From an uncultured Desulfomonile sp. (lineage in GTDB: Bacteria > Desulfobacterota > Desulfomonilia > Desulfomonilales > Desulfomonilaceae): a stretch of 51,794 nt of DNA. The notes beneath the pieces were generated by a model that made no database searches, was not told the origin of the DNA, and worked only from the letters and a program-made list of their open reading frames with translations. Below are positions 14,825 to 38,009 of this stretch, in pieces. Location: positions 1-51,794 of the forward strand of contig CAITZA010000043.1 in the NCBI GenBank assembly GCA_903896745.1. Reading direction: 5' to 3'. Position numbers and translations under genes: made by a program. Each line of letters starts with the position of its first letter. Positions within the stretch are counted from its first letter, which is position 1.

Positions 14825-17458
14825 TTAATAAAAGAAATTGGTTATCGCCTCGCTCATCAATACCGCAACGAAGACTGCAACTACAGCGTGAGGCCCGATT
14901 ATGTTGAGCGTATTGCCGGCTGATTTACTTGTCCACAAACCCAGTCTGTAAATGGTTATCAGTGTCCATACAAGCCCTATCCATATAGCCGCCTGCTGGA
15001 GGAAAAATGTGACATCGGTCGGCACTGTAATGATCAGACTGTTGAGCGCCTCAATATCAAAATATTTGCTTACAAGAATGGGAATCTGGACTCCCAGATT
15101 GATAAGGTAATATATGTGGAAAGCTGTAAAAGATCCTAGAGTCAGTGGTAGCATTGCCAACCCGAATCGGGCGAAATTCTGCCTCAATGTGTCCCCACAG
15201 GCCTTTTTCGAAATGACGGAGGCCAGTATCATCAATCCATTGATTACCGCAAGGATGACCAGAAATACTATTGAGAACCTTATGATCGACGGAAAGGGCA
15301 TCCATGATGTGAGAAGCGCATAAACAGGCATTTTGGTGACCATTTCACTGAATAGTCCTCCAATCATGCCCAAGACGAGAAAAGCCGTTCCTGCATGTCG
15401 CTGAGAGTGCTGCCAGATTTCCTGGCCCGGAGCGCGCAGATTAAGATTTATCGCGCCGTGAGGACAATTCTTCAGGCATTGACCGCAGACCTTGCAAACG
15501 CGGTTACTTCTTAATCTCGGACCCGCATGGCCAAACGGGCATCCAGCGCGTTCAGCAGTCCCCAGATAGCACTCATTTGACGAACATTCCGAAATGCAGA
15601 CATTACCGTTGGCTCTCAACTCAACAATCGATGTTTTGGATAAAACCCCAACCATGCCTCCTAACCCGCACAGGTACATACACCATGTCTGCCTCTCATA
15701 AACCATTGCCACCAAGATTGCCGACAGAAGCATCGTGAGTAATAACAATCCGAGATTAAACGGGGAATTCCTTATTGAGGTGGCTGTTTCAAACCAGATG
15801 ATAAAAAGGACTGCGCCTGCTATCAGGAAATCCGAGTTTCTTTTGAGGAAAGCTGGGAATGGTCGTTCGAGAGACAGAATCTTTTTGGACAATGCGGCAA
15901 TGACACCGATGGGGCATAGGGAGCACCAGAATCTGGCCCAAAACAAGGCCCCTATAATCAGTATCGGCCATCCAAGCGCCCAGCTTATCAGCGCCGCAGG
16001 ATTCCTCATCGGATCCTGAGGCCCTAAAAAGAGAAATACAAGAATTATGAAGAAAAACGGCACCGCCGCGCTTTGCAGCACAGCCGGGTATAATGGACTC
16101 TGCAACGCTTTCTTTATAAAGTTGAATCGTAACAGATTGAATTTCCATTTGCCCTCAACTCGCTTTAAATCAAAATATATGTCCTGCGGTCTGAGAACGC
16201 TTCTTTCACATACAAGTATCGCCCTTTTCAGCGAATTGGAAAGCTCGAGGTCATTACCGGGCCATGTGTAGTTGAGCAATGTGTTGAGAGTTTCTTCCGG
16301 GAGTTCGCCCACATTTCTTCCAAGCTCATTTGTGTATTTCTTGACGTAATGCCTTGCCAGAACCGGTATTTCCTTTCTCCTGTTCCGCAATGGAGGAATG
16401 CTCACGGAGCGATCCATCAAGGCATAAATGAAGGGGTGATCCTCAAGTGTAATGTCTGCGGGGTCCAGTCTTGTAGTCGCAATCAGGCGGACTTTGGATT
16501 TAAGGAGCCTCGCTCCGTTAACCCTTCTGAAGGTTTCGGTAACCACCGCCTCCAGAAGCTTCATCTGAACTATTGGGGTAAGCCTTTCCACCCCTCGGAC
16601 AAGGAGCGTCCCATCGTCAGTAAGTTCAAAATAACCGGGGGTTTCTTTTATCCCACCATCAAGTCCGGGTTCCTCAAGACCAAAGAATACTTTCAGTTGC
16701 TGCTCGGTAGTTTCTTCGAGAGACGTCTTTCGTTCAAGTTTCAGTGTCCCAAGTGGCGCCGGACTGTCGGATTTGTTCAGATCAACAATCAGGAAGACTT
16801 CCTTGCAATGGCGACTCTGTTTGAAAAGCCTGTGAGCCAGGACTTCCTTTCCCACACCGCTTTCCCCAATTATCAGCGCAGGCCCCTCACTAGCCGCCAG
16901 TTCTGCAAGCTTGCCAGAAATATTCTTTCGGACATAATCGCCCAAGACATAATCCGGAAATATGTGCTCCTCGCTGCTGATCAACGAATGCAGGGCGCGC
17001 CTCTTCAGCTTACTCCGGAACATGTTCCTGTGTTGCGAGAAAAGCTTCCTTACAAGATTCTTGACCAGCCCAACTATAAAATCGGGGTCTTGTCGCAGAA
17101 TGGATTCAAAAGCAGCGGACCCGATTTCTATGACCTGAGTCGGCTCATCAGCGATTAGTTCCGAATCCATTTGCCAGGGAACACCCGTAAAAAATTCAAT
17201 TCCCCCAAAGATGTCCCCGGGGCCAAGATTATCCACCGATATTTTTTCCTTGTCCTCATCCCTCAATACTACACTGGCAGACCCGGTCATCAGGTACACT
17301 ATCCTGTCAGTATCTGAGCTACGATCCATTATCGTCGAGCCAGTGGCAAATGTCCTTAGGACATCTTCGTCGTAAGCGAGTCGTCTGAGCGCCACTGGAA
17401 GGCGATCCCTGACATCCATCTTGAAAGGTTCTCTGCGCACGGGCTCAGCCATTTTCAA
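14825..17458 (-). CDS. Fusion protein: cyclic-nucleotide-binding domain + degenerate sigma54-activator-type AAA domain + NapH/NosR-like membrane polyferredoxin
   Basis: CNMP-like region (LGPGDIFGGIEFFTG); GESGVGKEVLAHRLF Walker A; YTWPGNDLELSNSLKRAIL; multiple TM helices with CSLCPIG, CMYLCGLGG and CKVCGQCLKNCPHGAI. Confidence 0.88.
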   Translation of the reverse strand: MKMAEPVRREPFKMDVRDRLPVALRRLAYDEDVLRTFATGSTIMDRSSDTDRIVYLMTGSASVVLRDEDKEKISVDNLGPGDIFGGIEFFTGVPWQMDSELIADEPTQVIEIGSAAFESILRQDPDFIVGLVKNLVRKLFSQHRNMFRSKLKRRALHSLISSEEHIFPDYVLGDYVRKNISGKLAELAASEGPALIIGESGVGKEVLAHRLFKQSRHCKEVFLIVDLNKSDSPAPLGTLKLERKTSLEETTEQQLKVFFGLEEPGLDGGIKETPGYFELTDDGTLLVRGVERLTPIVQMKLLEAVVTETFRRVNGARLLKSKVRLIATTRLDPADITLEDHPFIYALMDRSVSIPPLRNRRKEIPVLARHYVKKYTNELGRNVGELPEETLNTLLNYTWPGNDLELSNSLKRAILVCERSVLRPQDIYFDLKRVEGKWKFNLLRFNFIKKALQSPLYPAVLQSAAVPFFFIILVFLFLGPQDPMRNPAALISWALGWPILIIGALFWARFWCSLCPIGVIAALSKKILSLERPFPAFLKRNSDFLIAGAVLFIIWFETATSIRNSPFNLGLLLLTMLLSAILVAMVYERQTWCMYLCGLGGMVGVLSKTSIVELRANGNVCISECSSNECYLGTAERAGCPFGHAGPRLRSNRVCKVCGQCLKNCPHGAINLNLRAPGQEIWQHSQRHAGTAFLVLGMIGGLFSEMVTKMPVYALLTSWMPFPSIIRFSIVFLVILAVINGLMILASVISKKACGDTLRQNFARFGLAMLPLTLGSFTAFHIYYLINLGVQIPILVSKYFDIEALNSLIITVPTDVTFFLQQAAIWIGLVWTLITIYRLGLWTSKSAGNTLNIIGPHAVVAVFVAVLMSEAITNFFY

Positions 17459-19694: not shown

Positions 19695-22600
19695 CTAATT
19701 TTTCATCAACGCGCGGGCAACAACCAGGTCATTCCGGAATTCGACCCACGCCTCTATCTCAGACAATCCCATCCGGTTCACAGCCTCGCCGGCCTGATTC
19801 CGGAATTCCAGTCTTGCCCGTCCGCAACTATCTATATTCGAAACGATGACATCCTTGAGGTCATATCTCAATCCAACCCCAATGGCCTTCAGGCTCGCCT
19901 CCTTCAAAGACCAGATCGCATTCAGGGTTGACCAGCGGTCAAGACCAGCGCCAGCAAGCGTGATTTCTGTTTCATCAAAATAATCACCAACCCAGGACTC
20001 GGTTCTACGCTCAACCTTCTCGACATCTATTCCAAACCCAGCAAAATGTTCAACCGATGCGGCTGCAGCCATTGCAACCCCATTTGAATGTGTGAGAGAA
20101 AGAGCGCCAATCCTTGTTCCCGACTGGGAAGCCAGTTCAGCGAAAGGCTTTCCAAAATCATCCTGAAAAATCCTTATGTCCGTGGCTGGGGCGCCGCCTT
20201 TCCCCTCCATGGCAAGAAGCCTGCTGACCGAACGTTTGAGCGCAATTCTGCCACTCAGCCATTCCTTCTGACGCTTGCCCGAAGGTTTTGATTTTGCCTC
20301 GGCAATTTCGTCTGGTGTCAGAAACTCGAGAATTTCGGGTCGTCCGAACGACTCATCGTCCGGTATCAAAGTCCCGATCTCCACGGTGGACTCATGAAGT
20401 TTCCCCACAAACCTGGCTTTGGCTTCAAGTTCAATCATTTCTACTCCGTAGAGGCTGATCATCAAATTGCCGTCGCGATCTTTTATCCATCCATCAAATT
20501 TGAAACGCGAGCGCTCTTGATCTGAAGTTGCAGTAATGACCTCTCTTCGGGTTAACTCTCCGTCAAAAGGAATGGAATCAGCCTTATGAATGATGGCTTT
20601 CTCAATTCCAATCGGAAGCGCCATGACCCCATGAGACTCCATCCCAAACGCGGCTACTGCCTGAAAAACGGCCTCAACCGCCGCCGGTATGACATCTGAA
20701 AACATGTCCGGTCTTTGATCGGTATCCCTGTAACGGAATCGAATCGCATTCCAACCGCCTTCAATAGAGCAATGATCAAGCAGTCTGAAGGCCGGGCCAT
20801 GGAAAAACTGCGCATAAATCTCGGAATACGGAACGAACAGCGTCTGGCTCCAGAATTCAGGCTCCGGCCATTCTGGGGCATCGGCGCCGGCCAGTTGCAA
20901 CCTGCATTGATGGTGAACCCGCGGTTCGCCAAAGGCCCTTCCCTCCTTGTCTATAAAAATCGAAGTTATTTTAGCCTTATAGGTTGGGTTGGAGGAGTCA
21001 GGCGCGTCTTCGGACATGACCTCTATTTCAGCCTGAAACGGATCATTCCTGAAAACCTTGAGTGGTTGAAGGTAACGAACTTCTGAAAAAGTCACATTAC
21101 CGGCCTCAGGTTTCAGTAGTTGAAAGGCGCCCCTCATCAGTTCCAGTCCTCCAACCCCCGGAAACACCGCAGCCCTGTTTATGCGGTGATGATCCAGCAA
21201 CGGATGGGTTGGATCAAGAAACACTTTTACTCTTATTTTCTCACCGGGAATCAAATCAATGATATTCGCCTTCTGGCCCCCGATGATGACATCCCTGGTC
21301 TGCAAGGCGTTCGGTATTTCAAAAGCGTCTTTGTTGAAAGGCCCGAGTTTGCCTGCTACCAGAACTTCACGCGACGAACCCCTTCTAAGTATTTCAGCTT
21401 CGAGAAGCTCTGCGCCGGCCCTTGGAGGTATGAAATCTATGCCCGCGTTTTCCAGTGTCGCCTGGACACTGCCTCTGACAGCCATACCGATTTCCGCCCA
21501 TGGCGCCCAATCGATTATTGACGCCTTCGTTTCACCACCTGCGGATATAAACCGTATCAGATGAGCCAGTGAATCGTTGGCCGCTGAATAATCGAGCTGG
21601 GCAATGTTTCCAAACCGTCCCGAAACACTCCCGAAACCGATTATCCTCTTGGGTGGAAGGCCGTGTTTTTCCAAGGCTCTCAAAACATTCCACATACCCT
21701 GAACTTTCACATTGTAAACTAGCTCAATCTGTTCAAGCGTCTTTGTTCTAAGCGCCTTGCTAACATCCAGCCCGGCGCCGTGTATCACCATGTCCACACG
21801 TCCACACACAGAAGCGACATCACCCACAAAATCATCAACCGATTTCTCGTCCAGGATGTCAATCGAACGATACATAACCTCCGATCCCATGGACTTCAAC
21901 TCGCTAATGTTCCTGAAAACCTCTCCCTCTCCACGCATCCTGGAGAGTTCTTTTTCCACTTTCACAGGGGTGGGAGATACGCCTTCGCGTTTCATGCGCT
22001 CAACAACGCGATCCCGCTCTTTCAACCAATCTTCAGCGGAAAAATTGGCATAACCCTCCGATGAGGGTGTCTGACTGGTTCTGCCAAGCAGCGCAAACGT
22101 GAAAGAATTGTTTGAAGCCAGCCTCTTGAGACATTCGGCGGTAATTCCCCTCGCGCCTCCAGTCACAAGTATTACGTCACCGGCGTTCAAAGCATTGCTA
22201 TCCCTATCCCTGGAGGCCTCAATAAATCTTATCGCCTCAAGAGTTCCCGCGCCTGTTGTAGCGGTTTCCAGTGGATACTCCGAATTGAGGGATTTCACTA
22301 TTATTTCTACTTGCCGACCGAAACTCAGGGATGGATTTAAATCAATGATTCTGGACAGTGTTTCAGGATATTCCCGTGCAAAGGATTTTGCGGCGCCGGT
22401 CAAGGCGCCGATCCTGAAACCGTCTGGCTGGGGACTTCTAAACCCGTAAGCGCCGTCTTCCTGAACCACGGTTAACAGGACTGCCGGACCATTTTCGAAA
22501 AGTCCGGCAAGCTCGATGAAAAACTCGAAGCTCTTTTTCTCCAGATCATCAGTAGGGTTTATACCCATAAGGTTTATGATTCCGGTCGCGCCGCCGGCAA

Positions 22601-25600
22601 AGCGATGAAGCTCGCCAATCTCTTCAATCCTTGAAACATCCCTGTGTCCTGAAACGACCAGCTCCTTTTCAAGGAGTTCAGCAAGTTCATTAGGTCCGGA
22701 GATCACTACAAACCTATCGATCGTTCGGGGCTCGGTTTTATTTAATTCAGGCAAAGCTACCAGTCGGGCCTCGTAAAGATTTATTTCCGGGCCGGTCTCG
22801 GTCCTGGTTTCAACTTCCGGTTTGGCGCTTACGGTTGTTTCCCCAGCGGGAATACCCGACTGCCTGCGTTCCATGACAAACCCGATGATATGTTTGATGG
22901 TTGGGAAATCGGCGATCTTAAGACCATCTATCCGTGGAATATCGAAGGCTTCCCGCACTTCGGTGATGAATTCGGCCTGTTTTACCGTATCAATCCCCAG
23001 ATCGGCCTCCAAATCCAGCTCCACATCCAGCATATCCGCCGGGTAACCCGTCTTCTCAGACAGCAGACCAAGTATTTTCTCCTGAACAGCCGCTTCGTTA
23101 ACGGAATCCTGTGAAGCCGGCATGTCGTCCGGCGATGTTGCGCCCGATCGAGATGCCGTATGTGACAGCACAAAGTTGATGATATGCTCAATGGTAGGGA
23201 ATTCCGCTATTTTCAAACCATCGATACGGGGAATTTCAAACTTCTCCCTGACTTCCGTAATGAATTCCGCCTGTTTTACCGTATCGATACCGAGATCAGC
23301 CTCAAGATCCAACCCGGTGTCAAGCATATCCGCCGGGTAACCAGTCTTTTCGGACAGCAACGCCAGGACTTCAGATCTGACCTGATTCGTGTCGTGTACG
23401 GAAGAGGATAGGCTTAACTCTGCCACATCCTGCGAATCCTGTTTTTGTTCTATGTTTAGCGTTTCATGCGCCACGATTTCTACCGCGCCCGCAACACGCT
23501 GCGCGACCTTGAGCGTTCTGTCTTCTACCGTGACGACGGGGTCGTCATATCCGGTGATCTTCCTGAGCCACTCCCTATGAGTAGGTAAATCGACTATCCT
23601 GTTTTCCTCATGTGATTTGGCCTTATAGAGTGACATTACTATCTGTGAGCCGAAGCCGGCGGCCAGTCTCAGGGCGTATTGCGCATCGCATTTACCGCCT
23701 CTACTCAGATTGAGGTCCTGAAAGTCCGGGTCAGGCGTTTTCAGATTCGGGATTGGAGGCAAGAGACGTTTTTGCAAGCACCTCAGTGAAACGGCGTCCT
23801 CTACGCCCACCCCCATTGTGTGACCGGTAAATCCTTTCGTATTAGCGATCGGGATCTGAGTCACGCTATTTCCGAAAGTATTGCGCAGGGCCTTGATTTC
23901 CGCGTCTGCGCTTCCACCCCTCTTGGGAGAATAGGTTTCGTGGGACATGAAAAACATCTTGCCAGCAAGCTCTTCCCGACTGATTCCAGACTGCTTTTCC
24001 CATTTGGAAATCATGTCTTCCATAACATTGGAGATATGATCAACATCCAGTCTTGTGCCGTGAAAACCGCTATTTGCGACCATGCCGGCTTCTATTGACG
24101 CAACACTTTCCATGCCGCGGTTTTTGATGAGCTGTTCTTTTTCGAGGACAATCCCGACTGCGGCTGACCCCAGAATCAGGCCGTGACGCCTGTCATCAAA
24201 CGGCAATGCGGCTTCAGAAAGGCTCGAATTTGTGGTCGCCGCTCCCATCGCAAGAAAGCCCGAACCGATCCACGGTAACAGCGTGCGACCCGCAACATCG
24301 TCTGCGGCAATGATTATGACCCTGTTGGCCTGACCGGTCCTAATCCAGTCACGCCCCAGCAGTATTGCCTGAGTGGTTCCTGCGCAGGCCGCATCCACAT
24401 GGGTGTTCGGTCCTTGCGCTCTCAGCAGTTGAGCCAACTGTCCATGAGCCATGCTCATGACCCGTAGTAAAAAGGTCCTGTTGAAGGTGTACAGATCTTC
24501 ATCATCGGAGCCCGCAAGCTTCCCAAATTCTTGTGTAAACCATCTTGTTACACGTTCGCGCTCCCTGTCATCCCTGATCCTTTCGACAAGTCCGGCATAA
24601 AAATCTATAAGTCTTTTCTTTGCGCCCGCTCCATACTTGGCGGCCGTTTCGCGTGTCACCTCATCCACCAGTGAAGCCATTCCAGGGAACGCCGACGCAA
24701 ATATGACACCGGTCTCCTTACGAAGTTCAGGCGCAAGGGCCCAAGAGTCCGGAAGCTCCTTTCCCGTGCTTGTGGTTTTCATCTGCCGGACGAGTGGAAT
24801 GCCTGCGTCTCTCAGGGCCTCAAGACCGGCTGCCACCGCCAGTCTTGTGGTAACATCCATTGCCGCCACCAGCTTGTCATCCAGACCATACTCCTTAGCT
24901 ATCTCACCATCGTTGAAGAAGCCGGCAAGCTGAATGACACCCGATATGTCATCAACCGCCCTGAGATCAGCTTCACCCTGCGGCCCCTTGTACAAACGCT
25001 CAACGTTCTTGTCGAGCATCTCGACGCGACCATCCTCCGGCACCTGCTTGATGAAGTTCTTTCCCAAGATCAAATCATCCAAATTTTCCCGGTCGAAAGC
25101 AAAACGCACATCCGAAGGGAGGCCTGCGGAAACACCTGATATTACTACCGGCGTAAAATCCATGCCTTCGGATTTCACGGTTTGGACGGTTTTCTCAAGC
25201 GGCAGGATATTTTCTACAAACGACTGATAGCCGGTTTTCAATAAAGCCCGGATAGGTGAGCCCTGCATTTCGATGTATCTGCCAAATTCCTTCCTGGTAG
25301 CTATGGCCTCAAGCTCGTCATCCAGAAGCAGATCCAATGGGGAGGGTATCAGCTTTACGGTTGGACTGACGGGCGCCGCAGATACTGTCTGCTGTATGTC
25401 ATCCGCTCGTACCAAACGCAATTCTGGCTTTTTGTCGGCGGTTGAAACCCTTGAGGAAACGGCGCCGGTCTCCTCAAAATCTACGTCGAAACCCTCGACC
25501 ATGAGCGCGGCCAGGCTTTCCATCAACTGAAGTATCCCACCCTTTTTCGGATGGTTTGTCGGCAAGGCCAGAGCCTCGCTCGAAAGGGTGTCCAGCGTGA

Positions 25601-28600
25601 GATTCGTCATCACCCTCTTGGGTCCGCATTCGACGTATACCTTTATGCCCTCGCTATACATTTTTCTAAGTGTTTTTACCCATTCGACAGGCGCTGCAAA
25701 CTGTTTTCCGAGAAGGTCTCTAATCCTGTCAGGCGCCGCGGGACCGACGGGGTAAAAATCTCCTGTGACATTAGATAGTATTGGGGTGGTCGGCGGATTG
25801 ACCTTTAGCTTTTCGAGGGTTCTCATGAATGGTTCTCTCGCCGGAGCCACCACCCCCGAATGGAACGCAGCGGAAACCGGTACCAGTATTCCCTCAAGCC
25901 CTCGGGATTTGAAGAGCTCACCAGCTTTTTTTACCGCCTCAGTCTCTCCGGAAATGACTGTCTGTTTGGGTGAGTTTTTATTTGCCGCCACCACGTAGCC
26001 GTCAACCTCCGCCAGAGCCTCTTCCACAACTCGGGCGTCAGCCGGTATGCTCATCATAAGACCCGGATCAGCAATGCTAACCCTGGCCATTTCACGGCCC
26101 CTCACTGCCACGGCTTCGAGAGCGTCTCTGAACGAGAAAACTCCGGCGGCCACACATGCGGCATACTCTCCCAATGAATGTCCAGCGCACGCCGCCGGTT
26201 TAATCCCGAGCGATTCGAGCAGCCGGAACATCGCGGTATCAGCGGTCAGAATCATGGGCTGGAGGATCTGGGTGTCCCTGAGCGGGTCACTTTCCTCTCT
26301 TGCAGATCTGTCAAGCGCTGCCTCATCCGGAAATACCGTTGAGATTATTGAAGGCAGACCGAGGGCTTGCAGTATTTCGTCCGCGTCTGCAAAAGTCCGG
26401 GCCACTATGGGGAAACGGTCGGCAAGGTCCCTGAACATGAATGGATATTGAGATCCCTGCCCCGGGAAAAGGAACGCGGCTCCAGGTTTAAGCCGACCGG
26501 CCGACCCTTGGGCAAAACTTATTCCACGAGCCGGCAATACTGCCCTCTTCGACGCATCCCCAATTACATCCATTATGGTTTCAAGCTTCTTGACAACCAT
26601 TTCAGCGTCTGTTGCGCCAAAACCGAACCGCAGCTCGAATCCCGATACATTCTTTCTCGAATCCGAGGAGAGCTGTTTGAAATTTGAAGGATTTATTTGC
26701 CCAAGAAGTTGCTTCACCCTCTTTTCTAGCTCTTCAGGCGTATTGCCCGCGACAGCCCAGACCTCGCCTTCAGTCCTCAAATTGGCCGGTTTCGGCCAAC
26801 GTGGTGGAACGAATTCAACTGTTTCAGCCTTTTCGGCAACCGGAGCATTTCTCGGGACTAGCTTCAGGCCAGGAGAGAACTCCTGAAGAATTACATGGAA
26901 GTTGGTTCCTCCAAACCCGAATGCGCTGACACCAGAGCGGCGTGGATTGCCATTCCGGGTCTTCCATGGTTCAGAGTCGGTCAAGAGTTTTAGTGGCGAA
27001 TTTGTCCAGTCTATGCAAGGGTTTGGGGTGCGGATGTTTATTGTTGGGGGCAAGGTCCTGTGGTACAGGGCAAGTAGGGCCTTGATGATTCCCGCTGCCC
27101 CTGCGCCGGCCTTCAGATGGCCTATCTGGGATTTTACCGAACCGATTCCAACAGACCCATTGGCCGATCCGGCTTCACGGAAAAAGGTGTCCAGCAAAGT
27201 CAGCTCGGTTTTATCGCCAACCGGGGTAGAAGTGCCATGCGCCTCTATAAGTCCAATAGATTTCGGATCTACGTCTGCAGCCTCCAGGCAAGCCCTTATG
27301 GCCCTCTCCTGACCGGCCGCGTTAGGCGCCGTAATGCCCTTTCCCCGACCGTCGGAAGATGACCCCACTCCTAACACCACACCGTAAACACGGTCATTAT
27401 CCCGGATGGCGTCAGATAGTCGTTTCATGACAAGAATCCCTGCGCCCTCACCCATTATGAACCCGTTGGCCCCGGAATCGAACGGCCGCGAACCATCAGC
27501 CGAAAGCGCCCCAACCTTACAGAATTTTATGAACGAAGAAGGATGCATGGCAGCGTCAACCCCGCCGGCCAACGCCACCTCCATGAATCCGGCTCGAAGA
27601 CCGTTCACCGCATTCATCACCGCTGCAAGCGATGACGCGCAGGCCGCGTCCACAGTAAAGTTCGGCCCCTCCAGATTGAATACATTGGCTACGCGTCCTG
27701 ATATTACGTTGGGGAGCTCACCGGGAAGTGAATCCTCCGTTATCTCCGGCAATCCCTCCAGATAGCGCTGCCTGAATATTTCTATCGCCGCCTCGCCCGA
27801 GGCAGGATCAAGACCCGCCTGTTTAAAAGATTCCTTTAAAACATCAACAGCGCGAGGGAGCGACAGCCTCTCGGCGTAACGGTCCGTCGTCTCGCCTCCC
27901 ATGGAATTTCCAATTACTATCCCGACTTTCTTGCCTTTGAGATGCTCAGGTTTGAGACCGGCGTCTTCGAGGGCGTCCGCAACGCAGGCTACAGCCAGTT
28001 TCTGGGTCCGATCCATCTTCTTTGCCACAGATGGCGGTATGCGGAATTTCAGCGGATCAAACTCAAAATCGGTAACAAACCCGCCTATACATGAATAGGT
28101 CCTGTCAGGAACCTTTGGATTGGGATCATAATAATAGTCTATGTTCCTCCACCTGTCGGCCGGCGCCTTAACTATGCCGTTTTTCTGATCAATTATGTAT
28201 TTCCAGAAACTTTCCGGTGAATCCGAGCCCGGTAACCTCAGGCCGATTCCAACAACCGCTATGGGTTCATGTGACTGCCTGAAATGAAGCTCGACCTGTT
28301 CCGACTCCTCTGACTGCTCCGGTTCAGATTTTGCCGGTATGCTTTCGGAAGCGACCGCCGCAGTCTCAACAGGCGGAGTAGGCACGGATTCTGTTTTTGC
28401 GGCCATGTCAGGAACAGCCGGACTGTCGGGTTGCTCATGAATCGTTTCAGTAACGCCTAAAGTGTTTATTGGCGATGATTGCCTCATGTTTGAAGGATTT
28501 TCCATGACAAAAATATCTCGACCTTTATCCATGATTTCATGATGAATTTCATCAATGGTGGTTTTGCGCTCCAGCAGGCATACACCCTGCCCCATCAGAT

Positions 28601-30509
28601 AGAGGCCTCGCTCAAGTTGATCGACCTCGGACAAATCACAAAAAACGGGATTTTCGGAACAGGCTGTTGACGGATCTATCGCGCAACCTTTTGACGCCAA
28701 TCTCAGGGCGCCGAGATTATCTTTCTCGTATAGTTCCTTGCGTTCCCTGAGAGGCACACCGTCCCGCAAGCGGTCATGTTCCCTTGTGATGAGCAGCGAG
28801 GCCATTGGTGATCCGGCTGCCCTGGCCTTAATATTGACGGTTCGACCAATGACGACCGTTCCGGTATTCTCGATGGTAAGCCTTTGGTAGGTGTCGGTAA
28901 TGGCGCATGTTGAAACTATTTCGGAAGCGGTAAGATAGGCTGTTCCCAACTGGAGCCCCGATCGGAGTCCCCTAGATGTCAAATCCCCCAGCATACCCGC
29001 TATGAACGCGGTAGCCTGAGGCGAGGCCACACCGCCTGCAAAAAGAACAGATAACTCGCTCAAATCAAGGCCCGACTCCGCATGTTTCTCCAGTTCATCA
29101 AGGTTCGAACTCCACAGGGTAAGGCTACCGAGATTGCCAATATGTCCGCCGGATTCATTACCCTCAAAAACAAATCTCTTAAGCCCGGACTTGATCCCAT
29201 CCGAAAGCATCGCTGGCGCAGGACAATGCAGGTAGCACTTCACCCCAAGCGCCTCTATCCTCTTGGCAAGGTCAGGTCCACCGGCCGCAAGGATGGCAAA
29301 CTTCGGTGGTTTTTTTGACATTAACTGAAGATGGGCCTCGTACCGGTTGGCGTTTACATCCAGCCCCATCAGTCCAACGCCATACAAATCATTCGTCTTC
29401 TCCCAAGCCGCATCCATAGCCTGTCTGGCTATCGGTCCAGGCATGTTGCCAAGCGCCAGAAATGGCAAGGCCCCGCCTTTGGCCACCAACGCAAGAAAAT
29501 CGGCGTTGTCGCTGACATGCGCCATCGGCCCCTGAACGATGGGATATCGGGTTCCATGATCCCTGCTTAAAGCAGACCCCTCCGAAAACGGCCACGAGGT
29601 TTCCCCCTCGTTCATGCTCCTCCCAAACTCCTCCACTATCGCCGATACGCTTCCGAACCTTGACGCCAGATTCTTGCCGAGAATGATGTCCTCAGACAAA
29701 GGAAGCAGGCCCTCATCAATGTCAGGAGTGTTGGAAGGATTACCTATCGAGGTGTTGAGTCTGAAAAAATAGGATGGCAGTTCGTCGGGTGTTAAGGATT
29801 CCTCAATCTTGCGAAGCTCCCTGACGATTTTTGTCCCGACCCGCGAATACACCCTCAGAATTCTGGAGCCGCCTTCTCCCAGAGTAGATGTCGCCGGCAA
29901 TGCAAGCCCGGACAGGAATTTCTTGAGGTCTTCGGATAACGCAGATGATTCAGTCAGAAGAAGATGATTATCCAGAATCACGCCCGCAGCGCCGGCCCTC
30001 ACCGCCCCCGCCGCTGTCCTCAATGAAACGCCGCCCTGAAGAAGAACCGGAAGGTCTGACGACTGCAGTATCTTCTGAAGCAACACAAAACCATTCGTCT
30101 CGCTCACCCAACCGGGTCCCTCAGATCCACGAACAATAACTCCCGCAGCCCCCGCGTTTTTAACTATCGAAGCATGCTCGGCTTTACCAACTTCCACAAA
30201 TACTGGAAACGGATTCCTGGAAAGAATTCCATACTCCAGCGTCCGCAGGTCTTCTACATCATTCAGCGTAATTATCGCGAGCCGAACGTTTGGCGCCGCC
30301 GAATACCGCTCGAGCTCCCTCAAATTCACCCGAACACCGTAATTTACGTTTGCCGGGACCTCGATCAGGCATTGGCCAGCGGTAGCGTGATCCACAACCC
30401 CAAGCCCACCCGCCTGTCCAACTTCTACTATCAGACCGGAATCATTATTGAAATACGGGTTCACATATAGCAACGGAATCCTTAAACCGGAAACTCCAAT
30501 AGATCTCAT
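19695..30509 (-). CDS. 3604-aa single-chain lipid/polyketide megasynthase: NPD-like ER x2, KS, AT, second KS, ACP x2, KR, DH, Sfp-type PPTase
   Basis: Uninterrupted ORF with recognisable motifs for each domain (see domain features). Start overlaps the TetR stop (ATGA). Confidence 0.95.
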   Translation of the reverse strand: MRSIGVSGLRIPLLYVNPYFNNDSGLIVEVGQAGGLGVVDHATAGQCLIEVPANVNYGVRVNLRELERYSAAPNVRLAIITLNDVEDLRTLEYGILSRNPFPVFVEVGKAEHASIVKNAGAAGVIVRGSEGPGWVSETNGFVLLQKILQSSDLPVLLQGGVSLRTAAGAVRAGAAGVILDNHLLLTESSALSEDLKKFLSGLALPATSTLGEGGSRILRVYSRVGTKIVRELRKIEESLTPDELPSYFFRLNTSIGNPSNTPDIDEGLLPLSEDIILGKNLASRFGSVSAIVEEFGRSMNEGETSWPFSEGSALSRDHGTRYPIVQGPMAHVSDNADFLALVAKGGALPFLALGNMPGPIARQAMDAAWEKTNDLYGVGLMGLDVNANRYEAHLQLMSKKPPKFAILAAGGPDLAKRIEALGVKCYLHCPAPAMLSDGIKSGLKRFVFEGNESGGHIGNLGSLTLWSSNLDELEKHAESGLDLSELSVLFAGGVASPQATAFIAGMLGDLTSRGLRSGLQLGTAYLTASEIVSTCAITDTYQRLTIENTGTVVIGRTVNIKARAAGSPMASLLITREHDRLRDGVPLRERKELYEKDNLGALRLASKGCAIDPSTACSENPVFCDLSEVDQLERGLYLMGQGVCLLERKTTIDEIHHEIMDKGRDIFVMENPSNMRQSSPINTLGVTETIHEQPDSPAVPDMAAKTESVPTPPVETAAVASESIPAKSEPEQSEESEQVELHFRQSHEPIAVVGIGLRLPGSDSPESFWKYIIDQKNGIVKAPADRWRNIDYYYDPNPKVPDRTYSCIGGFVTDFEFDPLKFRIPPSVAKKMDRTQKLAVACVADALEDAGLKPEHLKGKKVGIVIGNSMGGETTDRYAERLSLPRAVDVLKESFKQAGLDPASGEAAIEIFRQRYLEGLPEITEDSLPGELPNVISGRVANVFNLEGPNFTVDAACASSLAAVMNAVNGLRAGFMEVALAGGVDAAMHPSSFIKFCKVGALSADGSRPFDSGANGFIMGEGAGILVMKRLSDAIRDNDRVYGVVLGVGSSSDGRGKGITAPNAAGQERAIRACLEAADVDPKSIGLIEAHGTSTPVGDKTELTLLDTFFREAGSANGSVGIGSVKSQIGHLKAGAGAAGIIKALLALYHRTLPPTINIRTPNPCIDWTNSPLKLLTDSEPWKTRNGNPRRSGVSAFGFGGTNFHVILQEFSPGLKLVPRNAPVAEKAETVEFVPPRWPKPANLRTEGEVWAVAGNTPEELEKRVKQLLGQINPSNFKQLSSDSRKNVSGFELRFGFGATDAEMVVKKLETIMDVIGDASKRAVLPARGISFAQGSAGRLKPGAAFLFPGQGSQYPFMFRDLADRFPIVARTFADADEILQALGLPSIISTVFPDEAALDRSAREESDPLRDTQILQPMILTADTAMFRLLESLGIKPAACAGHSLGEYAACVAAGVFSFRDALEAVAVRGREMARVSIADPGLMMSIPADARVVEEALAEVDGYVVAANKNSPKQTVISGETEAVKKAGELFKSRGLEGILVPVSAAFHSGVVAPAREPFMRTLEKLKVNPPTTPILSNVTGDFYPVGPAAPDRIRDLLGKQFAAPVEWVKTLRKMYSEGIKVYVECGPKRVMTNLTLDTLSSEALALPTNHPKKGGILQLMESLAALMVEGFDVDFEETGAVSSRVSTADKKPELRLVRADDIQQTVSAAPVSPTVKLIPSPLDLLLDDELEAIATRKEFGRYIEMQGSPIRALLKTGYQSFVENILPLEKTVQTVKSEGMDFTPVVISGVSAGLPSDVRFAFDRENLDDLILGKNFIKQVPEDGRVEMLDKNVERLYKGPQGEADLRAVDDISGVIQLAGFFNDGEIAKEYGLDDKLVAAMDVTTRLAVAAGLEALRDAGIPLVRQMKTTSTGKELPDSWALAPELRKETGVIFASAFPGMASLVDEVTRETAAKYGAGAKKRLIDFYAGLVERIRDDRERERVTRWFTQEFGKLAGSDDEDLYTFNRTFLLRVMSMAHGQLAQLLRAQGPNTHVDAACAGTTQAILLGRDWIRTGQANRVIIIAADDVAGRTLLPWIGSGFLAMGAATTNSSLSEAALPFDDRRHGLILGSAAVGIVLEKEQLIKNRGMESVASIEAGMVANSGFHGTRLDVDHISNVMEDMISKWEKQSGISREELAGKMFFMSHETYSPKRGGSADAEIKALRNTFGNSVTQIPIANTKGFTGHTMGVGVEDAVSLRCLQKRLLPPIPNLKTPDPDFQDLNLSRGGKCDAQYALRLAAGFGSQIVMSLYKAKSHEENRIVDLPTHREWLRKITGYDDPVVTVEDRTLKVAQRVAGAVEIVAHETLNIEQKQDSQDVAELSLSSSVHDTNQVRSEVLALLSEKTGYPADMLDTGLDLEADLGIDTVKQAEFITEVREKFEIPRIDGLKIAEFPTIEHIINFVLSHTASRSGATSPDDMPASQDSVNEAAVQEKILGLLSEKTGYPADMLDVELDLEADLGIDTVKQAEFITEVREAFDIPRIDGLKIADFPTIKHIIGFVMERRQSGIPAGETTVSAKPEVETRTETGPEINLYEARLVALPELNKTEPRTIDRFVVISGPNELAELLEKELVVSGHRDVSRIEEIGELHRFAGGATGIINLMGINPTDDLEKKSFEFFIELAGLFENGPAVLLTVVQEDGAYGFRSPQPDGFRIGALTGAAKSFAREYPETLSRIIDLNPSLSFGRQVEIIVKSLNSEYPLETATTGAGTLEAIRFIEASRDRDSNALNAGDVILVTGGARGITAECLKRLASNNSFTFALLGRTSQTPSSEGYANFSAEDWLKERDRVVERMKREGVSPTPVKVEKELSRMRGEGEVFRNISELKSMGSEVMYRSIDILDEKSVDDFVGDVASVCGRVDMVIHGAGLDVSKALRTKTLEQIELVYNVKVQGMWNVLRALEKHGLPPKRIIGFGSVSGRFGNIAQLDYSAANDSLAHLIRFISAGGETKASIIDWAPWAEIGMAVRGSVQATLENAGIDFIPPRAGAELLEAEILRRGSSREVLVAGKLGPFNKDAFEIPNALQTRDVIIGGQKANIIDLIPGEKIRVKVFLDPTHPLLDHHRINRAAVFPGVGGLELMRGAFQLLKPEAGNVTFSEVRYLQPLKVFRNDPFQAEIEVMSEDAPDSSNPTYKAKITSIFIDKEGRAFGEPRVHHQCRLQLAGADAPEWPEPEFWSQTLFVPYSEIYAQFFHGPAFRLLDHCSIEGGWNAIRFRYRDTDQRPDMFSDVIPAAVEAVFQAVAAFGMESHGVMALPIGIEKAIIHKADSIPFDGELTRREVITATSDQERSRFKFDGWIKDRDGNLMISLYGVEMIELEAKARFVGKLHESTVEIGTLIPDDESFGRPEILEFLTPDEIAEAKSKPSGKRQKEWLSGRIALKRSVSRLLAMEGKGGAPATDIRIFQDDFGKPFAELASQSGTRIGALSLTHSNGVAMAAAASVEHFAGFGIDVEKVERRTESWVGDYFDETEITLAGAGLDRWSTLNAIWSLKEASLKAIGVGLRYDLKDVIVSNIDSCGRARLEFRNQAGEAVNRMGLSEIEAWVEFRNDLVVARALMKN
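19698..20270 (-). other. Megasynthase domain: C-terminal Sfp/AcpS-type phosphopantetheinyl transferase
   Basis: LSLTHSNGVAMAAAAS, FGIDVEKVERR, AIWSLKEASLKAIGVGLRYDL. Confidence 0.9.
20420..21215 (-). other. Megasynthase domain DH-like double hotdog
   Basis: THPLLDHHRINRAAVFPGVGGLELMRGAF ... FFHGPAFRLLDHCSIEG ... DVIPAAVEAVFQAVAAFG. Confidence 0.75.
21330..22185 (-). other. Megasynthase domain KR (ketoreductase)
   Basis: VILVTGGARGITAECLKRL; MVIHGAGLDVSKAL; GFGSVSGRFGNIAQLDYSAANDSL. Confidence 0.9.
22867..23379 (-). other. Two tandem ACP domains with Thr at the canonical phosphopantetheine Ser position
   Basis: Both read DLEADLGIDTVKQAEFITEVRE. The codon is ACG in both, checked on the nucleotide sequence. 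Confidence 0.92.
23615..25160 (-). other. Megasynthase domain KS2 (divergent ketosynthase retaining the Cys-His-His set)
   Basis: THVDAACAGTTQAILLG; SHETYSPKRGGSADAEI; NTKGFTGHTMGVGVED; LAAGFGSQIVMSLYKA. Confidence 0.85.
25580..26500 (-). other. Megasynthase domain AT (malonyl-type acyltransferase)
   Basis: FLFPGQGSQYPFMFRDL; GHSLGEYAACVAAG; VRGREMARV; SAAFHSGVV, consistent with malonyl selectivity. Confidence 0.9.
26880..28275 (-). other. Megasynthase domain KS1 (ketosynthase)
   Basis: EPIAVVGIGLRLPGSDSPESFW; active Cys VDAACASSLAA; EAHGTSTPVGDKTEL; SVKSQIGHLKAGAGAAG; GFGGTNFHVILQE. Confidence 0.95.
28770..30509 (-). other. Megasynthase domains: two tandem 2-nitropropane-dioxygenase-like FMN TIM-barrels (PfaD/ER-like); the second is the more canonical
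   Basis: First: LIVEVGQAGGLGVVDHATAG...GAAGVIVRGSEGPG...LQGGVSLRTAAGAVRAGAAGVI. Second: YPIVQGPMAHVSDNADFLALVAKGGALPFLALGNM...FEGNESGGHIG...FAGGVASPQATAFIAGM...LQLGTAYL. Confidence 0.75.
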
Positions 30510-31465
30510 GATATCACCTTTAATATCCCGGCAGTCCCGGGCTCTTCGGGTTTGATCGCAAACCCGTAAAACAAAACCTCCCGAACGGTATCGATCTCGT
30601 CCACAAGTGAGCCTTCGCCTCCCTCATGGAGCCACTTCTGGATTACCCCGTTCAGGAATCCTATGATCCCAAAAAATACCGTGTAATAATTCATCTGTTT
30701 CAGCTTGCCTAGACGTGAAGCCTTCCAGCAACGCCTCTTCAAAGAAGGCAAAGCCCCTATAAGCTCCTGAATGAACTTCTCAGAAAACTCGCGACCAAAG
30801 TCCTTGTGCTCCTGAATGATCACCTTGAAAAACGCCGAATTCTTCTCGAAAAAACTGAGGTAAATCTTTATGATGCTCTCTATGATCTCGAGCACATCCT
30901 CCTGGCCGCTTAAACGCCTCTTCGCAAGCTCAATGAACTCACTCATCGTGTCGTCCTTGAGCGCTGTGAAAAGACCCTCCTTAGTACTGAAATAACGGTA
31001 GACAGTGCCTTTGGCTATCCCAGCGCGGTCCGCAATGCTGTCAATTGTCGAGGAATGAAACCCCTTCTCCGAGAACTCCGCCAACGCAGCCGCCAGGATA
31101 CGCTCACGAGCGTCCTTCTGCTTCTTGCGTTTGTGGGGCTCATGCTGCGTCGGACGCCTTAAACTCTGGAACAAAAGGTCCTCCAGTATCTCGTTACGCC
31201 TGACGCCAAGGTTTTCCACAGTCTCCAATACGCATCGGTAAAACTCCCTGATCAATGCGTCAGAGTAAATCGGGGCCACGGTGAGCGCCCCAAACACGCT
31301 TTCCACAAAAGCCAGCGTTGTCTCAGCCTTCGAATTTTCATCGAGCCCATCCTGGCTCAACTGGTCTGAAAGCAGCCTGATGAGTTGTGGAACGGCGAAA
31401 GTATCCTTGTGGGCCTTTGTGCGGGAAACGACATGACTGATCTGATCCTCTACCTTTTGATCCAT
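30506..31465 (-). CDS. TetR/AcrR-family regulator with about 115-aa N-terminal extension
   Basis: HTH: ARERILAAALAEFSEKGFHSSTIDSIADRAGIAKGTVYRYFSTKEGLFTAL, starting around residue 118. Confidence 0.93.
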   Translation of the reverse strand: MDQKVEDQISHVVSRTKAHKDTFAVPQLIRLLSDQLSQDGLDENSKAETTLAFVESVFGALTVAPIYSDALIREFYRCVLETVENLGVRRNEILEDLLFQSLRRPTQHEPHKRKKQKDARERILAAALAEFSEKGFHSSTIDSIADRAGIAKGTVYRYFSTKEGLFTALKDDTMSEFIELAKRRLSGQEDVLEIIESIIKIYLSFFEKNSAFFKVIIQEHKDFGREFSEKFIQELIGALPSLKRRCWKASRLGKLKQMNYYTVFFGIIGFLNGVIQKWLHEGGEGSLVDEIDTVREVLFYGFAIKPEEPGTAGILKVIS

Positions 31466-31939: not shown

Positions 31940-32818
31940 TTACGGGATGATTTTCAGGCCGGCCAGGAATTCAAAGACTGAATTGGCGGTATCGTGCGGT
32001 TTTTCCATGGGGACGAAATGGCTGGCGCCTTTAATACGATTTAGAGTCACATGAGGAACTTCACGCAGGAATTTGTTTGCGCAACCCTTGAGGAAGACGT
32101 CTGAGCTTTCGCCGTAAATTATAAGGACAGGGGTTTTGAGCAGACGCGGGTATTTCCATACACCCGCCGGACAGGCGGCAAAGCATTTTGATTCCCATTC
32201 CGGTTCGCATCTTATTCGGGTTAGACCGCTTGAAAGATCCTGAAAACCGTGTTCTATGTATGCGTTGAGAAATCCTTCTGACCAATTTTTGAAAGGGTGT
32301 CTGTTCAGGTATGCGTCGAGGACGGTTTGTTTTGATGGCCAGATTCGGGTTCGCCGGGCGGCGCCGGAGATTATGGGGAAAAGGTTTGTCATTCCGAGCT
32401 TCTGGGCCCCGAATAGGATCAGGTTCATGTATTGCGGCATAATGGTCGGGTCTATAAGGATAAGCGCCTGAAAGAGTTCGGGGCGCCTGGCCGCCAGCAT
32501 CATGCTTGTCACAGCTCCAAGGGAGTGACCGATAGCCACGACAGGCAGGCTGAGGTGACTCAGGAAATCGCCCAGATCGTTTGCAAAGACATCCCAGTTC
32601 TTGAGGGTTGAGGGATCAGACGGGACGGTGGTTTTACCGTGACCTCTGTAATCCATCCCGACGAGCCTGAGCCTTGAGGCGAGAATCCTGGCCAGTGGCG
32701 AATATGCGCCGGCGCAGAAGCCTGTCGCGTGGGCGAAATGAGCAAGCGGCCCTCTGCCTCCCCAGTCAAGATAGGCAAATGTTCCGTCCTTAACCTCAAC
32801 AGATTTCTGAACGGCCAT
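31940..32818 (-). CDS. Alpha/beta hydrolase
   Basis: VVAIGHSLGAVTSMML nucleophile elbow; VLIIYGESSDVF; GASHFVPMEKPHD. Confidence 0.92.
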   Translation of the reverse strand: MAVQKSVEVKDGTFAYLDWGGRGPLAHFAHATGFCAGAYSPLARILASRLRLVGMDYRGHGKTTVPSDPSTLKNWDVFANDLGDFLSHLSLPVVAIGHSLGAVTSMMLAARRPELFQALILIDPTIMPQYMNLILFGAQKLGMTNLFPIISGAARRTRIWPSKQTVLDAYLNRHPFKNWSEGFLNAYIEHGFQDLSSGLTRIRCEPEWESKCFAACPAGVWKYPRLLKTPVLIIYGESSDVFLKGCANKFLREVPHVTLNRIKGASHFVPMEKPHDTANSVFEFLAGLKIIP

Positions 32819-33588: not shown

Positions 33589-34026
33589 ATGTCCCGATTC
33601 AATCCGTCCGATCCCGACTTTGAGAGGCGAGTGCGCCAGAGTTTTGGCGAGCAGAGGATAATGCAAACCCTCGGCGCGAGCATCACCCGGGTAATGCCCG
33701 GGGAGACAGTTATTGAGCTTGATTATGGGGCTCACCTCACCCAGCAGCATGGGTATCTGCATGCGGGTGTTGTCACCACGATTGCAGACAGCGCCTGCGG
33801 GTACGCGGCCTACACCCTGATGCCGGCGTTGTCTGAGGTTTTGTCGGTGGAGTTCAAGACAAATTTCCTTTCACCGGCCAGGGGGAACAGGTTCGTGGCT
33901 ACCGGTCAGGTAATAAAACCCGGTCGAACCCTTACAATATGTAAAGCCGAGGTAGTGGCTCACGACGATAATGAGACCAGACTGGTGCTGATAATGCAAG
34001 CCACCATGATATGTATACAGCGATAA
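33589..34026 (+). CDS. PaaI-family hotdog thioesterase
   Basis: QQHGYLHAGVVTTIADSACGYAAYTLMPALSEVLSVEFKTNFLSPARG. Confidence 0.88.
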   Translation: MSRFNPSDPDFERRVRQSFGEQRIMQTLGASITRVMPGETVIELDYGAHLTQQHGYLHAGVVTTIADSACGYAAYTLMPALSEVLSVEFKTNFLSPARGNRFVATGQVIKPGRTLTICKAEVVAHDDNETRLVLIMQATMICIQR

Positions 34027-37559: not shown

Positions 37560-38009
37560 ATGGAGCTTTTACCCAATCCATATAGAAATGGCGAATGTTT
37601 CTTTTGCGGCCCTGCCAATCCGGTCGGGTTGAAGCTGAGCTTCTATCGGGAAGGCACGGAACCGGAGGAGCTTGTATGCAAATGGTTTCCGTCCCATCTT
37701 TACAAGAGTTTCGGCAAGATATTGCACGGCGGTATACAGAGCGGTCTTTTCGACGAGATCATGGGGTGGACTACATTGCATTTGACCCGGCAAATGGGAG
37801 TAACATCCAGCATCAATGTGGAATTCATCAAACCGCTCTATGTTGAGCAGGACATAGAGGTTCGATGCCGGATAGCGTCCCGTGAAGGCTCAAGGATAAA
37901 TCTGGCTTCGGAGATTCGCAACAGCCGGGGTGAGATATGTTCCAGAGCCACGGGGACTTATGTCCTGATGGATCCCGAGCGTTTCAAAAGCGCCACAAAA
38001 GAGGAATGA
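37560..38009 (+). CDS. PaaI-family hotdog thioesterase
   Basis: CFFCGPANPVGLKLSFY...KILHGGIQSGLFDEIMGWTT. Confidence 0.88.
   Translation: MELLPNPYRNGECFFCGPANPVGLKLSFYREGTEPEELVCKWFPSHLYKSFGKILHGGIQSGLFDEIMGWTTLHLTRQMGVTSSINVEFIKPLYVEQDIEVRCRIASREGSRINLASEIRNSRGEICSRATGTYVLMDPERFKSATKEE

What the first reader, a model, noticed from the sequence alone, without database searches (positions are those of the whole stretch)
19695..30509. Whole secondary-lipid/PKS assembly line in one 3604-aa chain (ER-ER-KS-AT-KS'-ACP-ACP-KR-DH-PPTase)
The ORF carries domains that the established bacterial PUFA synthase system spreads over PfaA (KS-AT-ACP-KR-DH), PfaC (second KS/CLF), PfaD (NPD-type FMN enoyl reductase) and PfaE (PPTase). 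Here they are one chain with the ER at the N-terminus and its own PPTase at the C-terminus. FMN-type ER plus integrated PPTase also recalls fungal/actinobacterial FAS I, but the order differs. I see no thioesterase domain, so the release mode is unknown. Domain identities are read from motifs; the product is not predictable from sequence alone.
Basis: partly seen in the sequence, partly recalled or inferred. Interest (0 to 1): 0.85.

Follow-up and report, generated by a model that had tools for sequence, protein, structure and literature searches.

The report
One-chain fatty acid synthase, threonine carriers
A sulfate-reducer family (Desulfomonilaceae) carries a single giant enzyme holding every step of an iterative fatty-acid/polyketide assembly line, and both of its carrier domains have a threonine where carrier proteins almost always have the serine that holds the growing chain.

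Summary
Window 19695-30509 (minus strand) is one intact 3604-aa ORF: ER-ER-KS-AT-KS'-ACP-ACP-KR-DH-PPTase. All eight Desulfomonilaceae genomes that are at least 90% complete carry it, and no other genome in the sample has an orthologue. It sits in a two-gene operon behind a FadR-like TetR regulator. The ER is a FabK-like tandem whose first barrel lacks the active histidine. KS' is not the PfaC chain-length factor: it keeps Cys-His-His and forms its own clade. The closest characterised layout is ArsA+ArsD (phenolic-lipid FAS). The closest core is an actinobacterial KS-AT-KS'-ACP-KR-DH synthase resembling "Type R" secondary-lipid synthases. The most unusual part was missed: both ACPs read LGIDTVK, with Thr in place of the phosphopantetheine Ser, in all 20 orthologue ACPs. 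Yet the ACPs are the best-conserved domains of the chain, and other carriers read from these genomes have Ser. Actinobacterial relatives also have Thr. Type II FAS genes coexist, including a FabMG-FabZ fusion, so this is probably a dedicated secondary-lipid synthase. The product is unknown. Thr-linked phosphopantetheine is inferred, not shown.

The parts
19695..30509 (-). 3604-aa single-chain iterative type I synthase ER-ER-KS-AT-KS'-ACP-ACP-KR-DH-PPTase
   Evidence: ORF and Pfam calls; full-length orthologues
29595..30488 (-). ER1 (aa 8-305): FabK/NMO-like TIM barrel, catalytic His replaced by Trp134 (EGPGWVS), probably structural
   Evidence: PF03060 in this piece, alignment, model with two beta/alpha barrels
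28440..29594 (-). ER2 (aa 306-690): FMN-type FabK-like enoyl reductase with GGHIG, His456
   Evidence: PF03060, TIGR03151, Foldseek FabK
26670..28277 (-). KS1 (aa 745-1280), Cys957/His1091/His1131
   Evidence: PF00109+PF02801, alignment
25515..26492 (-). AT (aa 1340-1665), GHSLGE Ser1445, His1550; malonyl-type motifs
   Evidence: PF00698, fabD match, alignment
23550..25157 (-). KS' (aa 1785-2320): divergent second ketosynthase, Cys2042/His2190/His2230 (DAACAG, SHETYS, GFTGH), invariant in orthologues
   Evidence: PF00109 partial, FabF-like in PDB search, alignment, tree
23166..23372 (-). ACP1 (aa 2380-2448) with Thr2410 at the phosphopantetheine site (codon 23280-23282)
   Evidence: PF00550; LGIDTVK in all orthologues
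22872..23078 (-). ACP2 (aa 2478-2546) with Thr2508 at the phosphopantetheine site (codon 22986-22988)
   Evidence: PF00550; aligned to Ser-type carriers of PigH 5y08
21480..22712 (-). KR (aa about 2600-3010; SDR core 2780-3006, Tyr2974)
   Evidence: PF08659, alignment
20400..21257 (-). DH double hotdog (aa 3085-3370), His3107; second-half catalytic Asp position reads Glu (PAAVEAVFQ) in all orthologues
   Evidence: PF21089, PF14765, alignment
19698..20342 (-). Sfp-type PPTase (aa 3390-3604), GIDVE and WSLKEA intact; P1b' type (LSLTH)
   Evidence: PF01648, PF17837, TIGR00556, alignment
30506..31465 (-). TetR-type regulator (319 aa, FadR/FasR-like), overlaps the synthase start by 4 nt; only gene conserved next to the synthase in all orthologous loci

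Best explanation
It is a self-contained iterative type I fatty-acid/polyketide synthase that makes a long, reduced acyl chain for a special (secondary) lipid of Desulfomonilaceae. AT loads malonyl units onto two ACPs. KS1, perhaps with KS', condenses them. KR, DH and the FMN enoyl reductase ER2 (with the His-less ER1 barrel as its built-in partner) process the beta-carbon, and the cycle repeats. The C-terminal PPTase activates the chain's own ACPs, most likely on threonine rather than serine. A fatty-acyl-responsive TetR regulator in the same operon controls it. Release is probably by transfer to a partner not encoded nearby. Shown: architecture, conservation, intact motifs, Thr at the site, operon. 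Inferred: activity of each domain, iteration, Thr-phosphopantetheine, regulation, release. Guess: the product, possibly the signature branched long-chain hydroxy fatty acids reported for the LPS of Desulfomonile tiedjei.
For: Every catalytic step of a FAS cycle has a domain, with key residues intact except in ER1. All eight family genomes of at least 90% completeness carry it, 15 of 18 overall. The TetR-synthase operon is the only conserved context, and the regulator's best model is FadR. The ArsA/ArsD system has the same tandem ER with a His-less first barrel and a DH-PPTase; ArsA makes C23-C25 fatty acids (PMC4824345). The ACPs are the most conserved domains: 86% and 83% mean identity against 47-78% for the other domains. 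Thr is present in 20 of 20 orthologue ACPs, with ACG, ACC and ACA codons. Most genomes with the synthase have an AcpS and another PPTase beside the second synthase, so the fused one looks dedicated.
Against: No product, expression or biochemical datum. No thioesterase domain and no conserved partner gene. KS' has a very long branch, and its structure model was unusable (pLDDT 43). DH has Glu at the usual Asp position. Type II FAS genes exist in the same genome, so the need for this synthase is not explained. The lipid record of D. tiedjei is known here only from the title of a cited paper.
Confidence: 0.66

Rival explanations
1. It is the main (core) fatty acid synthase of these bacteria, a bacterial analogue of FAS I that replaced type II FAS.
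For: No canonical FabZ/FabA and no canonical FabH in Desulfomonilaceae; Shulse & Allen proposed the same for Desulfobacterium autotrophicum Type S (PMC3098273).
Against: G000 has a FabD-FabG-AcpP-FabF operon and a FabMG-FabZ fusion ORF; weak FabA/FabZ hits, mostly in ORFs of similar size, occur in 13 of 18 family genomes, though not in G005. The sister family f2 lacks the synthase yet also lacks FabZ/FabH by these models.
Confidence: 0.12
2. It is a PUFA (EPA/DHA-type) synthase with all Pfa activities fused.
For: Best NCBIfam model is PfaA; tandem ACPs, KR, ER and PPTase present.
Against: Below the PfaA cut-off; KS' not a CLF; ER not PfaD; one PKS-type DH instead of a FabA-like DH pair; no PfaB-like AT.
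Confidence: 0.05
3. The Thr ACPs are never phosphopantetheinylated; they are vestigial, and the chain works with a carrier in trans (or not at all).
For: Ser is the attachment residue in known carriers (own knowledge); other carriers exist in the genome.
Against: ACPs are the most conserved part of the chain; no other conserved Ser near the site and the PPTase domain stays intact; Thr fixed in all orthologues and shared with actinobacterial relatives.
Confidence: 0.15
4. It supplies acyl chains to type III PKSs for phenolic lipids, as ArsA does.
For: Same ER-ER-KS-AT-ACP-ACP-KR and DH-PPTase parts as ArsA/ArsD.
Against: No chalcone/stilbene synthase-type PKS over the cut-off in 12 family genomes; KS1 outside the Ars clade.
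Confidence: 0.03

Closest known systems
ArsA/ArsD type I FAS of Azotobacter vinelandii and Beijerinckia (Type P, phenolic lipids)
   Same: ER-ER (first barrel His-less)-KS-AT-ACP-ACP-KR in ArsA and DH-PPTase in ArsD, seen in the Beijerinckia copy
   Different: Two proteins there, one here; no KS'; Ser ACPs; type III PKS partners present there and absent here; KS1 in another clade
KS-AT-KS'-ACP-KR-DH synthases of Actinomycetota (Nonomuraea gerenzanensis and anonymous genomes)
   Same: Same core order, KS' with SHETY motif, Thr ACPs, highest-scoring KS1 and KS' outside the family
   Different: No ER and no fused PPTase; next to a large acyl-CoA carboxylase; function unknown
Type R secondary-lipid synthases (Shulse & Allen 2011: Acidobacteria, Elusimicrobia, Roseiflexus)
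   Same: KS-MAT-CLF-ACP-KR order in one protein followed by a PPTase; P1a xGxP and P1b' hShxH PPTase motifs (PMC3098273)
   Different: PPTase is a separate gene there; no N-terminal ER reported; 3-6 ACPs; their ACP residue could not be checked here
Pfa (PUFA) synthases, Types A-E
   Same: Overall set of activities, multiple ACPs, PfaA is the best NCBIfam model
   Different: Spread over 3-5 genes; PfaC KS-CLF with paired DHs; PfaD-type ER; Ser ACPs
Enediyne PKSE (own knowledge)
   Same: KS-AT-ACP-KR-DH-PPTase run in one chain
   Different: No ER, no KS', one ACP, conserved thioesterase partner

Membership tests
PfaA / PUFA synthase | PfaA model TIGR02813 over its cut-off | tested here: not met
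   929.8 bits against 1010.1
PfaA / PUFA synthase | PfaC-type KS-CLF with Cys-less CLF | tested here: not met
   KS' keeps Cys/His/His and is a separate clade
PfaA / PUFA synthase | PfaD-type enoyl reductase | tested here: not met
   Only FabK among enoyl-reductase models matches; FabK top in Foldseek
Ars (Type P) synthase | Tandem ER-KS-AT-ACP-ACP-KR plus DH-PPTase | tested here: met
   Same order, with KS' inserted and both halves fused
Ars (Type P) synthase | Type III PKS partners | tested here: not met
   No PF00195 over cut-off in 12 family genomes
Ars (Type P) synthase | KS in the ArsA clade | tested here: not met
   ArsA KS groups with G042 and L053, not with KS1
Type R secondary-lipid synthase | KS-AT-second KS/CLF-tandem ACP-KR in one protein | tested here: met
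   definition from PMC3098273
Type R secondary-lipid synthase | KS phylogeny with the Roseiflexus/Solibacter/Elusimicrobium references | not tested
   No Type R reference genome could be reached; only actinobacterial look-alikes
Type R secondary-lipid synthase | PPTase motifs P1a xGxP and P1b' hShxH | tested here: met
   FGKP and LSLTH in the window copy
Fungal/actinobacterial FAS I | FAS I domain order (AT-ER-DH-MPT and ACP-KR-KS-PPT; own knowledge) | tested here: not met
   Order here is ER-ER-KS-AT-KS'-ACP-ACP-KR-DH-PPTase
Phosphopantetheine carrier protein | Ser at the attachment site | tested here: not met
   Thr in both ACPs of all orthologues
Phosphopantetheine carrier protein | PP-binding profile (PF00550) over its cut-off | tested here: met
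   30.4 and 33.4 bits against a cut-off of 20.8

The most novel reading that the evidence does not exclude
A natural class of acyl carrier domains carries 4'-phosphopantetheine on threonine instead of serine. In Desulfomonilaceae it is activated by a PPTase fused to the same chain, and in both phyla where it was found it goes with the KS' (SHETY) ketosynthase.
Probability: 0.5. Interest if true: 0.75.

Novelty: new variant of a known kind. Interest (0 to 1): 0.6.

Why it matters
If active, this is a one-gene lipid factory, simpler to move between hosts than four- or five-gene Pfa systems, in a family with reportedly unusual signature lipids. The threonine carriers would break a rule used to find and annotate carrier proteins and PPTase targets (Ser only), and they allow a direct, cheap test: mass spectrometry of one small domain.

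Tried and rejected
Core-FAS idea: suggested by missing FabZ/FabH but weakened by FabD-FabG-AcpP-FabF and the FabMG-FabZ fusion. Alkylresorcinol idea: no type III PKS. Release by nearby hydrolase or thioesterases (31940-32818, 33589-34026, 37560-38009): not conserved near orthologues. KS' structure: model too poor to use. A pattern scan of viral contigs for Thr ACPs found none. A further pattern search meant for another phylum returned only a genome with the same match coordinates as G004, so it is not independent. Literature searches for Thr carrier proteins found nothing relevant; absence in this library is weak evidence.

Full report
Observation. The ORF at 19695-30509 is real and on the minus strand: 3604 aa, no internal stop. 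Whole-chain and piecewise Pfam scans give ER1 and ER2 (both PF03060), KS (PF00109/PF02801), AT (PF00698), a second KS (PF00109, weaker), two PP-binding domains, KR, a two-part PKS dehydratase and a PPTase (PF01648/PF17837), in that order. The start overlaps the upstream TetR-type gene by 4 nt.

Conservation. A search of 60 genomes finds the N-terminal ER-ER part at 51-62% identity in the other family members, 15 of 18 family genomes in all. That includes all eight that are at least 90% complete. None of the other 42 genomes has a match of that kind (best 31%). A named scan shows the family is Desulfomonilaceae (Desulfomonile MAGs and relatives). G005 has the size of the D. tiedjei DSM 6799 chromosome (own knowledge, not confirmed by the tools). 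Seven other complete orthologues are 3524-3576 aa and 57-60% identical end to end. The only gene conserved beside them is the regulator, 63-71% identical, with the same 4-nt overlap. Its best NCBIfam model is the fatty-acid regulator FadR, below cut-off.

Anatomy. ER1 and ER2 are two FabK-like barrels (model with pLDDT 76 and pTM 0.80; Foldseek top hits FabK). ER2 has the GGHIG His; ER1 has a Trp there in every orthologue. The same pattern, a His-less first barrel and a GGHxG second, is in the Beijerinckia ArsA-type protein and in other ER-ER synthases, so it is a trait of this ER type and not decay in the window copy. KS1, AT and KR have their catalytic residues. DH has its His but Glu at the usual second-half Asp. 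KS' keeps Cys2042, His2190 and His2230 in all orthologues. In a tree of 38 KS domains, KS' and its actinobacterial counterparts form a 100/100 clade apart from Pfa-type CLFs, on a long branch whose position is uncertain.

Threonine carriers. Both ACPs read LEADLGIDTVKQAEF. All 20 ACPs from eleven orthologous ORFs have Thr, with varied Thr codons. The alignment to a solved carrier (PigH, 5y08) puts this Thr on its Ser. The ACPs are the most conserved domains of the chain (86% and 83% mean pairwise identity; AT 78%, KS' 75%, KS1 69%, ER2 67%, KR/DH/PPTase about 50%, ER1 47%), so they are not degenerate. The other carriers read from the same or sister genomes have Ser. ACPs of seven other Pfa/Ars-like synthases from the plasmid collection and of two deltaproteobacterial ones have Ser, but the closest hit, Nonomuraea gerenzanensis, has Thr (LGVDTVKQAE). 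A degenerate DNA pattern for this motif hits 5 of 395 genomes of the window's phylum, all Desulfomonilaceae, and 3 of 397 genomes of the actinobacterial phylum sample; the backward-read control pattern hits none. The actinobacterial hits that can be read are KS-AT-KS'(SHETY)-ACP-KR-DH synthases or fragments of them, next to a large acyl-CoA carboxylase. Thr therefore goes with the KS' type in two phyla. Most genomes with the synthase have three PPTases: an AcpS, the fused one, and one beside a second, Ser-type synthase.

Second synthase and FAS II. The same genomes have a second chain of about 2650 aa, ER-ER-KS-AT-ACP(Ser)-KR-DH. Canonical FabZ/FabA and FabH were not found in this family or the sister family f2. 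However, G000 has FabD-FabG-AcpP-FabF in a row and a 546-aa FabMG-FabZ fusion. A type II route is therefore likely present, and the giant chain is more likely a secondary-lipid synthase.

Placement. By order of domains the closest characterised system is ArsA+ArsD; ArsA makes C23-C25 acids for type III PKSs (PMC4824345). Type III PKSs are missing here and KS1 is not of the Ars clade. By core (KS-AT-KS'-ACP-KR) it fits the description of Type R in Shulse & Allen 2011 (PMC3098273), whose products are unknown; Type R references could not be fetched. It is best filed as a new variant: a Type R-like core with Ars-like ER-ER and PPTase ends in one chain. A looser all-in-one relative, ER-ER-KS-AT-ACP(Ser)-KR-AT-DH-PPTase of 3451 aa, exists in another deltaproteobacterial MAG (L053), so full fusion by itself is not unique.

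Product. Unknown. A lead: a 1994 paper cited in PMC2211471 reports signature branched long-chain hydroxy fatty acids in the LPS of D. tiedjei (title only). A KR-containing long-chain synthase would suit, but the second synthase is an equal candidate. This is a guess.

Noticed in passing
L064:5585-7225 (G000 C363): 546-aa fusion of a FabMG-type enoyl reductase with a FabZ-like hotdog dehydratase, the probable FAS II reductase and dehydratase; weak FabA/FabZ hits, mostly in ORFs of similar size, in 13 of 18 family genomes.
   Followed up: partly
Desulfomonilaceae and sister family f2 genomes: No canonical FabH over the model's cut-off in any of these genomes, although FabF and AcpP are present in those read; priming of fatty acid synthesis must differ.
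   Followed up: partly
L033 (G000 C352) and L034-L039: Second single-chain synthase of about 2650 aa, ER-ER-KS-AT-ACP-KR-DH, with an unusual Ser carrier motif (LSIRSS) and usually its own PPTase nearby.
   Followed up: partly
window 14825-17458 (-): 877-aa protein joining a cyclic-nucleotide-binding domain, a sigma-54 AAA+ domain and a membrane 4Fe-4S part; next to the synthase also in three close relatives.
   Followed up: no
L053:9554-19909: 3451-aa ER-ER-KS-AT-ACP-KR-AT-DH-PPTase chain, effectively an ArsA-ArsD fusion, in a deltaproteobacterial MAG.
   Followed up: partly
window 30506-31465 (-): The TetR-type regulator has a conserved extension of about 115 aa before its DNA-binding domain.
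   Followed up: no
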